From an endosymbiont of Escarpia spicata (GTDB lineage Bacteria > Pseudomonadota > Gammaproteobacteria > Chromatiales > Chromatiaceae): DNA of 64,000 nt. The notes under the pieces were generated by a model, which saw nothing but the letters and a program-made list of their open reading frames with translations, was not told the origin of the DNA and did no database searches. Location of the stretch: positions 1 to 64,000 of the forward strand of contig QFXE01000002.1 of the NCBI GenBank assembly GCA_003349915.1. Reading direction: 5' to 3'. Positions within the stretch are counted from its first letter, which is position 1; each line of letters begins with the position of its first letter. The translations under genes and the position numbers were made by a program. Positions 2,054-20,866 of this stretch are shown here, piece after piece.

Positions 2054-2081
2054 AGTGGGAGCGCGTCTCCGCTCTCCCACT
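2054..2081 (-). terminator. Rho-independent terminator after icd
   Basis: A 12-bp stem (2054-2065 with 2070-2081, one mismatch) with a TCTC loop lies 10 bases past the icd stop codon. Read on the minus strand it is followed by TTTTTACC. This marks the end of the rTCA gene array. Confidence 0.75.
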
Positions 2082-2090
2082 ATGGTTCAC

Positions 2091-4322
2091 TCAACCAAGC
2101 GCGTCCAATGCAGCGTTGAAGGTTGCGCTGGGCCGCATGGCTTTTAGCGTCTTTTTCGCATCCGGAGAAAAGTAAGCGCCCATGTCGACTGGTTGGCCCT
2201 GTGCTGCGATCAGCTCTTCGGCGATCGCTGCCTCATTCTCTTCAAGCTGTTTTGCCAGTGGGGCGAACCGCGCCTGAAGTGCTGCGTCACCGGTCTGTTC
2301 GGCCAGTGCCTGTGCCCAGTACATGGCAAGGTAGAAATGGCTTCCCCGGTTATCCAACTCATTGACTTTGCGGGAGGGTGACTTGTTGTTATTCAGGAAC
2401 TTGCCCGTTGCCTGATCAAGGGTATCCGCCAACACCTTTGCCTTGTCATTGTCGAATGCAATGCTCAGATGCTCCATGGATGCAGCAAGTGCAAGAAACT
2501 CGCCTAGGGAATCCCACCGCAGGTGTCCCTCTTGCCTAATCTGCTGAACATGCTTTGGCGCAGATCCACCCGCACCTGTCTCGAACAGTCCACCGCCGTT
2601 CATCAGCGGCACGATAGAGAGCATTTTTGCACTGGTGCCCACTTCGAGAATCGGATACAGATCGGTGTTGTAATCACGCAGTACGTTACCGGTTACCGAG
2701 ATGGTGTCTTCGCCTGCTCTCATACGCTCTACGGAGAGTTTCGCAGCGTCGTAAACGCCCATGATGCGAATATCCAGTCCAGCGGTATCGTGGTCCTGCA
2801 GGTATCTATCTACCTTTTTCTTCAATTCAACATGGTGCGCCCGGTCTTCATCCAACCAGAAAATGGCAGGCCAACCAGTTGCCTTGGCGCGGGTCACGGC
2901 CAGCTTCACCCAATCCTGGACCGGGGCGTCTTTAACCATCGCCATGCGCCAGATATCACCCTTCTCGACCTCATGCTCATGGATAGTGCTTCCATCGCTG
3001 GCTACGACGCGAATAGTTCCATTTCCCGGGGCTTGGAATGTCGTTGGATGAGAACCGTACTCTTCGGCCTTTTTCGCCATCAAGCCCACATTGGGAACGG
3101 TACCCATAGTGGCCGGATCCAGCGCTCCATTGGCAATGCAATTATCAATAGTGGCCTGGTATAGAGGTGAGTAGCTGTGGTCAGGAATGATGAACTTGGT
3201 GTCTTGCAATTCACCATCGGAGTTCCACATACGGCCGGAGGTACGAATTGCAGCAGGCATGGATGCGTCGATGATCACATCGCTGGGGACATGCAGATTG
3301 GTGATGCCCTTGTCGGAGTTCACCATTGCAAGCCCGGGACGGTCTGTGTACAGCGCCTGGATATCCGCTTCGATCTCTGCTTTTTTATCAGCAGACAGAG
3401 TCTCGATCTTAGCGTAAAGGTCGCCGAGACCATTGTTGAAGTCAACGCCGAGTTCAGCAATGGTATCAGCATGCTTCTCGATGACATCTTTGTAGAAGAC
3501 CTTGACGCAATGACCAAAAATAATGGGGTCAGAAACCTTCATCATGGTCGCTTTCATGTGCAGCGAGAAGAGTATGCCCTGCTGCTTGGCGTCTTCCACC
3601 TGTTCCCCGAGAAACTTGGTCAGGGCATTTTTGCTCATGAAGGTTGCGTCAACCACTTCACCCGCTTCCAGAGGAGTGCTCTCCTTCAGGACGGTGGTGC
3701 TTCCATCTTGAGCGACAAACTCGATTTTAGCGTCGGTTGCCTCAGCCATGGTCGTGGATTTTTCGTTGGAACAGAAATCCCCGCTGCTCATGGTCGCGAC
3801 ATGGGATTTTGAGTCAGAACTCCAGGCACCCATGGAGTGCGGGTTCTGCTTCGCATAATTCTTTACCGCGCCCGGCGCTCTACGGTCGGAGTTGCCTTCG
3901 CGCAAAACAGGGTTGACGGCACTGCCCAGGACCTTGGCGTATCGGGTCTTGATCTCCTTCTCTGCATCGTCTTTCGGATTCTCGGGATAGTCAGGGAGGT
4001 TATAGCCCAACTCCTGAAGTTCCTTGAGCGCGGCCTTCAGCTGTGGGATCGAGGCGCTGATATTTGGCAGTTTGATGATATTGGCTTCCGGTTTTTTTGC
4101 CAGATCGCCCAAAATGGCCAGATCATCGGATTGTTTTTGGTCGTCGGTCAGGTTATCGGGGAAGTTCGCGATGATCCTGCCTGCGAGAGAGATATCCCTT
4201 GTTTCGACGTTGATGCCGGACCCTGCTGTAAATGCCTTGACGATAGGCAAAAAAGAGTAGGTCGCCAGCGCAGGCGCTTCATCAGTTTTTGTCCAAACAA
4301 TCGTTGATGTCTGTTCTGTCAT
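2091..4322 (-). CDS. icd: Isocitrate dehydrogenase, NADP-type, monomeric
   Basis: At 743 residues this has the length of the monomeric Idh family, not the 45-kDa dimeric one. Family sequence is recognisable along the chain: the N-terminal [39 protein letters not shown] (around 140-160), the [11 protein letters not shown] segment, and near the C-terminus [20 protein letters not shown]. The enzyme interconverts isocitrate and 2-oxoglutarate plus CO2. As the last gene of an rTCA array it most likely runs in the carboxylating direction. The start follows a GGAAAAAAC purine stretch. It lies 80 bases after aclA, separated by a strong hairpin, and ends at a terminator. Confidence 0.95.
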
Positions 4323-20013: not shown

Positions 20014-20119
20014 TCATTTCCTCCGAAAGCACGCTCTTCGTCAATACGAAATCGACCCATCAAACGCCCCGAAAGTGGTGTTGTCTTACCTTCCAGAATC
20101 CTGCAGGGAGGCCGCCGTG

Positions 20120-20866
20120 CTACTCCGTATCTCTCGCGTAATAGCGCTCGCTGAGAGCCCCCCTGTCAAGGGACATTAATTCGGCATACTCGCCGTCGTA
20201 CTCGTGATTCTTTACCTGCTGGATGCGGATATCGAGCTCTTTACTCTCTTTGCGCAGATAGCGTCCATAGAGGCGCTTACCGAGAATCGCGATCTTGTGC
20301 TGGATGATCTCGGAGGGGCAACGCAGGGCGCACAGACCACAGCCCACGCATTCGTACGAGAGTTCCATGAGTTCGGCGATATCGCCGCGCATGGCGGACT
20401 GGATATAGTCCATGACCTGAAGCCCCTGTGGGCAGGCCTTGGTGCAGGTGCCGCAGGCCACACAGCGGAAGGTGACAGGATAGAGTTCTTTTATGGTGTC
20501 GACGTCTGGAGTGAGTTTTTCCAGGTCGTAGACTGCTTTCTCAAGGGGTACGGATGGTATCTGAGAGAGCGCCATCCCCTCTTGGACCAGGGTGGTGCAG
20601 GCGAGACCGGTATGAATCCGGTAGTCTCCGGGCAGTCGGTAGATAGTGCCGCAAGCGCCGCAGAAGCCTTCGCGGCAGCCAGCTCCGCGGATGATCTGCT
20701 GGCCGCTGTACTCTATGGCCCGCATGATCGTGGAGTCATCCGGAACCAGGGCGGGTTTGCCCATGATGGAAACTGTCACCATGCGCGCCTGGGGTTGCCC
20801 CGGCTGGTTGGTATCGCTCACAGCCTTGTTCTTGTCATCGGTTTCGTTTTGCTGATCGCCACTCAT
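20120..20866 (-). CDS. frdB: Fumarate reductase/succinate dehydrogenase iron-sulfur subunit
   Basis: About 248 residues from the chosen start. The plant-type 2Fe-2S domain carries GCREGFCGACGTIY. The C-terminal bacterial ferredoxin domain carries CVACGTCTKACPQG and CVGCGLCALRCPSE, giving two 4Fe-4S-type sets, a pattern nearer to TfrB/archaeal forms than to E. coli FrdB. The frame is open to 20944, but the ATG at 20864-20866 has a GGAG ribosome site eight bases upstream and is preferred. It is the first gene of the long rTCA array, with 106 bases before frdA. The promoter for the array is expected just upstream. Confidence 0.85.
   Translation of the reverse strand: MSGDQQNETDDKNKAVSDTNQPGQPQARMVTVSIMGKPALVPDDSTIMRAIEYSGQQIIRGAGCREGFCGACGTIYRLPGDYRIHTGLACTTLVQEGMALSQIPSVPLEKAVYDLEKLTPDVDTIKELYPVTFRCVACGTCTKACPQGLQVMDYIQSAMRGDIAELMELSYECVGCGLCALRCPSEIIQHKIAILGKRLYGRYLRKESKELDIRIQQVKNHEYDGEYAELMSLDRGALSERYYARDTE

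What the first reader, a model, noticed from the sequence alone, without database searches (positions are those of the whole stretch)
2054..20866. A nearly complete reductive TCA cycle in one collinear array with type II ATP citrate lyase
Sixteen same-strand genes (frdBA, hdrCB, korDABC, hdrA, flxDCBA, aclBA, icd) lie almost end to end, many with 1-8 base overlaps, closed by a terminator. AclA is 905 residues, far longer than the Chlorobi form, matching the divergent type II lyase. Such physical clustering in a gammaproteobacterial background suggests the cycle moved or was assembled as a unit. Knowledge of the families is established; the single-unit transfer is inference.
Basis: partly seen in the sequence, partly recalled or inferred. 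Interest (0 to 1): 0.85.

Follow-up and report, generated by a model that had tools for sequence, protein, structure and literature searches.

The report
Patchwork reverse-TCA operon of tubeworm symbiont
A deep-sea tubeworm's bacterial partner carries, in one row, several key genes for a rare way of fixing carbon dioxide; the row is already described in print, but its gene trees suggest that it was put together from at least two pieces with different histories and did not arrive as one block.

Summary
In detail: sixteen minus-strand genes (frdBA-hdrCB-korDABC-hdrA-flxDCBA-aclBA-icd) end to end, closed by a terminator; AclA is type II. 'Nearly complete cycle' is too strong: the array holds four cycle steps plus an electron-bifurcation module. 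Aconitase, transhydrogenase and malate dehydrogenase lie past the contig edge, PFOR and fumarase on other contigs.

The genome is a seep-tubeworm symbiont, probably the published Escarpia one. Cluster, synteny with Thioflavicoccus mobilis, HGT and operon-like expression are published. So: already known.

'Moved as one unit' fails. Core trees join T. mobilis to the symbionts and away from its relative Thiodictyon; AclA does the reverse; each rejects the other. Icd and AclB disagree about two further relatives. ACL is in 40 of 210 genomes of the order, tetrameric KorA in 13, both in 11. In T. mobilis and G119 the core runs into the rubrerythrin pair that in symbionts follows aclBA-icd. Best reading: a 13-gene core joined to a separate ACL module. 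Against: symbionts, mb35 and RIFOXYD12 share the core-ACL junction.

The parts
20120..20866 (-). frdB (tfrB-like): fumarate reductase iron-sulfur subunit; longest ORF reaches 20944
   Evidence: one CX4CX2C and two CX2CX2CX3CP motifs; its cysteine list holds no CC pair, so no CCG domain
18280..20013 (-). frdA (tfrA-like) flavoprotein; the E. coli covalent-FAD His position is Met
   Evidence: alignment with 3p4p; that the E. coli His is the FAD-linked one is recalled
17823..18230 (-). hdrC, two [4Fe-4S] motifs
16948..17826 (-). hdrB, two CCG cysteine motifs present
16677..16937 (-). korD ferredoxin-like subunit
15518..16684 (-). korA (longest ORF to 16720)
14523..15521 (-). korB
13953..14522 (-). 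korC
12010..13956 (-). hdrA, FAD and [4Fe-4S]-containing subunit
11496..11993 (-). flxD (FlpD/MvhD-like)
10456..11496 (-). flxC
9422..10450 (-). flxB
8601..9425 (-). flxA, NAD(P)H-binding (longest ORF to 9503)
8487..8600 (-). 114-bp gap between the core block and the ACL block; a hairpin can be drawn but is not significant in this genome
   Evidence: z 0.03 here, -1.4 in E. laminata symbiont, -3.2 to -4.8 in the other 4 of 6 folded
7212..8486 (-). aclB, type II ATP citrate lyase small subunit
4403..7120 (-). aclA, 905 aa, type II ATP citrate lyase large subunit; GHAGA motif at residue 273
2091..4322 (-). icd, monomeric NADP-dependent isocitrate dehydrogenase
2056..2081 (-). intrinsic terminator closing the array
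1465..2001 (-). rubrerythrin/ferritin-like protein (rbr2); its homologue directly follows flxA in T. mobilis and G119
848..1336 (-). rubrerythrin/ferritin-like protein (rbr1)

Best explanation
This is the known reductive TCA operon of a vestimentiferan tubeworm symbiont (genus of the Escarpia/Lamellibrachia seep symbionts). Proposed working, largely as published: FlxABCD takes electrons from NADH and HdrA splits them at its flavin. The low-potential half reduces ferredoxin/KorD and drives KorABC to carboxylate succinyl-CoA to 2-oxoglutarate. The high-potential half leaves through HdrCB to FrdBA and reduces fumarate, so one reductive step of the cycle pays for the other. [quoted passage not shown] Shown here: gene content, cofactor motifs, order, conservation. 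Inferred: direction, partners, bifurcation. As to origin, the array is a mosaic: a 13-gene core (frdBA-hdrCB-korDABC-hdrA-flxDCBA) has one history and the ACL module another; icd disagrees with AclB about mb35 and RIFOXYD12, so a third history lies either in the symbionts or in those two. In the symbionts aclBA and icd may have come together, since the same aclB-aclA-icd order stands without tetrameric kor in other genomes. The module sits between flxA and a rubrerythrin pair.
For: Families and motifs. Same 16-gene order in 6 of 6 genus genomes; the 13 core genes in the same order in 12 of the 13 tetrameric-kor genomes examined, G044 being permuted. rpoB puts T. mobilis + G119 with Thiodictyon 100/100 and rejects the grouping with symbionts, p-AU 7e-54. 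Core blocks and AclA conflict in both directions on matched taxa. Icd joins symbionts with named Sedimenticola MAGs, PL23a and Thiomargarita 100/100, away from mb35/RIFOXYD12/T. mobilis. Distribution: ACL 40 of 210, tetrameric KorA 13 of 210, both 11. aclB-aclA-icd stands in G200 and G201, which have no tetrameric KorA; G119 and T. mobilis run flxA into the rubrerythrins with no ACL between. Published: coverage across intergenic regions and shared expression of this cluster in the Riftia symbiont, except tfrAB (PMC11636981, passages).
Against: AclA does not reject a clade of symbionts + mb35 + RIFOXYD12 (p-AU 0.19), AclB supports it at 100/99, and all three share the flxA-aclBA junction, so core plus aclBA may have travelled together in that part of the tree. 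With RIFOXYD12 kept and no outgroup, frdBA does not reject the species grouping (p-AU 0.26) and the flxCBA tree contains it at 86/97; the decision rests on outgroups and on leaving out the mosaic RIFOXYD12. A Rhodospirillales MAG carries hdrB-korDABC-hdrA-flxD (partial) and flxA-aclBA-icd on two contigs, so the joined order may be older than my reading; its contig ends look odd. Trees used LG+G4 only, the groupings were named after first trees were seen, and some genomes are incomplete (G044 82%).
Confidence: 0.8

Rival explanations
1. Single-unit transfer: the 16 genes arrived together from one donor, and later swaps in T. mobilis, Thiodictyon, mb35 and RIFOXYD12 blurred the record.
For: Conserved order in 6 of 6 genus genomes; the flxA-aclBA junction is shared with mb35 and RIFOXYD12 and a Rhodospirillales MAG; AclA does not reject symbionts + mb35 + RIFOXYD12. 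Rubin-Blum 2019 proposes a probable single HGT for kor and tfr.
Against: AclA rejects a clade of the gammaproteobacterial core holders that have ACL (p-AU 6e-58); 29 of 40 ACL genomes in the order lack tetrameric KorA, some of them incomplete; the symbiont icd is of a different type from the icd next to the core in mb35, RIFOXYD12 and T. mobilis.
Confidence: 0.15
2. Vertical inheritance from a Chromatiales ancestor that had core and ACL together, with loss in most lineages.
For: ACL is in 17 of 61 genera of the order searched, and the AclA placement of T. mobilis with Thiodictyon agrees with rpoB.
Against: The core grouping of T. mobilis with symbionts contradicts rpoB; the nearest rpoB relative of the symbionts, G044, has a permuted and far more divergent cluster and no ACL match (that genome is 82% complete).
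Confidence: 0.1
3. The array runs oxidatively: KorABCD and FrdBA feed HdrA/Flx and the genes serve a bidirectional TCA cycle.
For: The genome also has citrate synthase, a two-subunit KorAB and another frdA-like gene on contig C17, and the other enzymes can in principle reverse (recalled).
Against: ATP citrate lyase is a citrate-cleaving enzyme (recalled); in the Riftia symbiont aclA and most of the cluster, not tfrAB, rise under sulfide limitation (passages).
Confidence: 0.1

Closest known systems
rTCA gene cluster of Escarpia laminata symbiont, T. mobilis and MAG RIFOXYD12_FULL_61_37 (Rubin-Blum et al. 2019, PMC6315080; parts 1 and 2 of 3 of the text read)
   Same: Same genes: type II aclAB, idh, korABCD, tfrAB, flxABCD-hdrABC, rubrerythrin, with acn, mdh and pntAB; the electron-flow idea is theirs
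   Different: This is another symbiont genome; I find that ACL and icd have histories different from the core, and that RIFOXYD12 is itself mosaic. In the parts read they treat ACL as acquired by HGT and kor/tfr as probably one HGT event
rTCA cluster of Candidatus Endoriftia persephone (PMC9796809, and PMC11636981; passages seen)
   Same: korDABC near aclAB; operon-like expression with coverage across intergenic regions
   Different: A vent symbiont; not among my fetched regions by name, so its order was not checked here
Thiol:fumarate reductase TfrAB of Methanobacterium thermoautotrophicum (recalled, and named)
   Same: FrdA scores best to the TfrA model (328 bits)
   Different: Below the TfrA cut-off (718); FrdB lacks the C-terminal CCG part that I recall for TfrB, and HdrB is a separate gene

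Membership tests
Type II ATP citrate lyase | Long AclA with SCS-alpha-like N part and citryl-CoA-lyase-like C part (feature recalled) | tested here: met
   905 aa; N part matches SCS alpha (126 bits), C part 621-895 matches citryl-CoA lyase weakly (36 bits, E 4e-9, below that model's cut-off); best solved relative is citryl-CoA synthetase small subunit 6hxq
Type II ATP citrate lyase | Separate AclB with ATP-grasp and citrate-binding domains | tested here: met
Type II ATP citrate lyase | Citrate cleavage activity | not testable with these tools
   none; GHAGA motif present, its phosphohistidine role is recalled
Tubeworm-symbiont rTCA cluster (Rubin-Blum 2019) | acl, idh, kor(4), tfr and flx-hdr in one conserved array | tested here: met
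   acn-pntAB-mdh follow across the contig break
Electron-bifurcating Hdr-Flx complex | HdrA with FAD-binding fold and Fe-S motifs, HdrBC with CCG and [4Fe-4S] motifs, FlxABCD including FlpD domain | tested here: met
Electron-bifurcating Hdr-Flx complex | Coupled reduction of ferredoxin and a high-potential acceptor | not testable with these tools
   biochemistry needed
Thiol:fumarate reductase TfrAB | TfrA and TfrB models at their cut-offs; TfrB fused to a CCG domain (fusion recalled) | tested here: not met
   TfrA 328 of 718 bits; TfrB 22 of 385 bits for FrdB; no CC pair among the cysteines of FrdB
Array transferred as one 16-gene unit | Congruent trees for core, ACL and icd | tested here: not met
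Core of 13 genes as one unit | Congruent trees for the core blocks | tested here: met
   same grouping at 100/100 in 3 of 3 rooted blocks: frdBA, hdrB-korABC-hdrA, flxDCBA. RIFOXYD12 left out as mosaic; hdrC and korD not in the rooted blocks

The most novel reading that the evidence does not exclude
The tubeworm rTCA operon is a cassette operon. A mobile 13-gene 'electron-drive' cassette (fumarate reductase, bifurcating Hdr-Flx and tetrameric OGOR), found without ACL in G119 and, in permuted form, in G044, is joined at the flxA boundary to an ACL module (aclBA, or aclBA-icd) with another history. Cassettes and sub-cassettes are exchanged among sulfur bacteria: RIFOXYD12 has a Thiodictyon-like hdrCB-kor-hdrA-flxD block between symbiont-like flanks. 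The core would then be a self-contained redox machine that can be joined to different carbon cycles.
Probability: 0.6. Interest if true: 0.5.

Novelty: already known. Interest (0 to 1): 0.35.

Why it matters
The cluster itself is published. What this adds is a test of how a carbon-fixation pathway is acquired: the trees speak for a join of separable modules and against one transfer, and the redox module exists without the enzyme that defines the cycle. That makes a question testable: does the core do something useful without ATP citrate lyase?

Tried and rejected
Magnetococcales as source or parallel: three Magnetococcales genomes searched (L016, L025, L031) hold KorA matches of only 34-36% in 572-639 aa frames, and tblastn at E 1e-8 found no core gene on the four fetched Magnetococcales contigs, some of them short. 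Core donor outside the order: 3 of 398 genomes drawn from the phylum matched at E 1e-90, the window's own and two at 48%; no close donor was found, and other phyla were searched only through 34 genomes that carry ACL. Promoters inside the array: no excess over shuffles. Hairpin at the flxA|aclB junction as a general regulator: z 0.03 in the window and -1.4 in the E. laminata symbiont, against -3.2 to -4.8 in the other four of six; not claimed. PF00330 hit at the right edge of the window, taken first for aconitase: it is leuC. No structure prediction was run; it would not decide between the readings.

Rows dropped: the AclA tree used 56 rows chosen from 123 extracted, duplicates of one genome included in that number; KorA 24 of 30; hdrA 17 and frdA 21 of 23 each; icd 28 of 30 chosen (two short rows out) from 49 extracted; rpoB 25 of the 28 genomes with a match (three split or partial frames out; two of 30 had no match); AclB 60 rows of more than 380 aa from 113 extracted. 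The p-AU tests used 10-28 rows. RIFOXYD12 was left out of the rooted block tests after its mosaic was seen. The groupings tested were named after the first trees were seen, which the AU test does not allow for. In one search I scanned the wrong strand for citrate synthase and the wrong strand for one malate dehydrogenase hit; both drew blanks and nothing rests on them.
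Full report
What is there. The 16 genes are present in the stated order on the minus strand, with families confirmed by NCBIfam and Pfam. From hdrC to flxA the genes are packed with gaps of -8 to +16 bp; wider gaps occur at frdB|frdA (106), frdA|hdrC (49), flxA|aclB (114), aclB|aclA (91) and aclA|icd (80). A terminator with z -4.7 lies after icd. Two rubrerythrin-like genes follow. The contig starts there; in two relatives assembled as one contig or nearly so (G075, G076) the next genes are those at the start of contig C11 of this genome: aconitase, pntA, pntB, malate dehydrogenase. 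So the array itself encodes four steps of the cycle plus its electron supply. A PFOR is on C9 (only a 225-residue piece was scanned in the latter), fumarase and RuBisCO on C16, citrate synthase, a two-subunit KorAB and another frdA-like gene on C17. Succinyl-CoA synthetase was not searched.

Whose genome. The held genome has 4,062,513 bases in 23 contigs. Table 1 of PMC6908572 lists an Escarpia symbiont, QFXE00000000, of 4.06 Mb in 23 contigs (passage). Nearest AclA relatives are Lamellibrachia and Escarpia symbionts at 94-96%. That the window is this Escarpia symbiont is inference.

What it works like. AclA aligns best among solved structures with citryl-CoA synthetase small subunit and carries a weak citryl-CoA-lyase-like C part, as expected of type II ACL (recalled). 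HdrB keeps two CCG cysteine sets; HdrA, HdrC, FlxB, FlxC, KorD and FrdB show cluster motifs. In the alignment with a solved fumarate reductase the flavin-linking His position is Met (role of that His recalled), which fits a non-covalent flavin. The proposed coupling, NADH to ferredoxin for OGOR and NADH to fumarate through HdrCB, is the published idea. By recalled midpoint potentials (NADH -320 mV, ferredoxin near -500, fumarate +33) it is downhill. Nothing here measures it.

Is it one unit. Across 210 genomes of the order, AclA is in 40 (E 1e-60 or better) and the tetrameric-type KorA (56% identity or more) in 13, the next KorA being 37%; 11 have both. G119 (99% complete) and G044 (82%) have the core without ACL. 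G151 is Thioflavicoccus mobilis 8321: the first 6,000 bases of its second contig equal plasmid NC_019941.1. Its ACL lies on the opposite strand about 14 kb from frdB, with no icd found within the 20 kb fetched around it; its icd stands just before frdB. Its core runs from flxA into the two rubrerythrin genes, as in G119; in all six symbiont genomes examined aclBA-icd stands in that place. Per-gene identity of the window to T. mobilis is 74-87% across the core but 64% for AclA.

Trees. rpoB groups T. mobilis and G119 with Thiodictyon at 100/100 and rejects a grouping with the symbionts. On matched taxa with outgroups, frdBA, hdrB-korABC-hdrA and flxDCBA each group T. mobilis and G119 with mb35 and the symbionts at 100/100 and reject the rpoB grouping (p-AU 1.8e-5, 7e-4, 1.5e-3); AclA groups T. 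mobilis with Thiodictyon at 100/100 and rejects the core grouping (2e-7). AclB places the symbionts with mb35 and RIFOXYD12 at 100/99 and T. mobilis elsewhere. Icd places the symbionts with named Sedimenticola MAGs, PL23a, G200, G201 and Thiomargarita at 100/100 and rejects a clade with mb35 and RIFOXYD12 (8e-6). Hence at least two histories in the symbiont array; the AclB/Icd conflict adds a third, but it cannot be said whether icd was changed in the symbionts or in mb35 and RIFOXYD12. The order aclB-aclA-icd also stands in L005 (PL23a), L008, L009 and Thiomargarita loci, so aclBA-icd may have reached the symbionts as one piece.

Results that cut the other way. AclA does not reject symbionts + mb35 + RIFOXYD12 (0.19), and these share the flxA-aclBA junction, so core and aclBA may have a common past there. 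Without outgroups and with RIFOXYD12 kept, the small blocks do not decide. RIFOXYD12 is itself mosaic: against mb35, of the same genus group, identity is 79-88% for frdBA, 58-76% from hdrC to flxD, 76-88% for flxCBA and 88% for AclA; the middle block groups with Thiodictyon at 100/100 and rejects mb35 (2e-7), while for frdBA and flxCBA a grouping with Thiodictyon is not rejected (0.47, 0.11), so the case for the flanks rests on identity. RIFOXYD12 and the Thiodictyon genomes both carry a rubrerythrin-like gene between frdA and hdrC. A Rhodospirillales MAG holds parts of the same order on two contigs, with AclA only 59% identical; misbinning cannot be excluded.

What is in print. Rubin-Blum et al. 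2019 (parts 1 and 2 of 3 read) describe the cluster, its synteny with T. mobilis and RIFOXYD12, HGT of ACL, and a probable single HGT for kor and tfr. PMC9796809 (passages) and PMC11636981 (passages) extend it to Endoriftia, the latter with operon-like expression except for tfrAB. PMC3522073 and PMC7540712 (passages) report ACL in seep symbionts. Among the papers listed by searches (open-licence library; most seen as listings only, supplements not available to me) I saw none that dissects the array into modules. [quoted passage not shown] the window holds a full-length monomeric NADP-IDH, and all 6 genus genomes examined hold it.

Verdict. Observation confirmed, array already known, single-unit transfer not supported, mosaic assembly the better reading.

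Noticed in passing
[quoted passage not shown]
   Followed up: yes
L133 and L134 (RIFOXYD12), joined coordinates 6899-26435: Mosaic cluster: Thiodictyon-like hdrCB-korDABC-hdrA-flxD block between frdBA and flxCBA-aclBA flanks that are closer to mb35, with a rubrerythrin-like gene at the frdA|hdrC edge as in Thiodictyon.
   Followed up: partly
window 8487-8600 and the same gap in five relatives: Stem-loops of differing sequence at the flxA|aclB boundary; strong in 4 of 6 genomes folded, not in the window.
   Followed up: partly
L219 and L074: A Rhodospirillales MAG carries hdrB-korDABC-hdrA-flxD(partial) and flxA-aclBA-icd on two contigs, with oddly ending contigs.
   Followed up: partly
window 39322-46428: Multihaem cytochrome group: MtrC-like multihaem protein, cytochrome c554, tetrathionate-reductase-family octahaem cytochrome, cytochrome b561 and an OprD-like porin.
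   Followed up: no
window 48186-51849: Pyruvate phosphate dikinase and its regulator, a possible exit of fixed carbon from pyruvate, in the same window but not in the array.
   Followed up: no
window 29034-37660: Large ORFs (447, 746, 337 and 433 aa) without an NCBIfam or Pfam match at the limits used.
   Followed up: no
window 71-538: Cyclic-nucleotide-binding-domain protein on the opposite strand at the contig edge; the spacing leaves no room for it at the same place in G075.
   Followed up: partly
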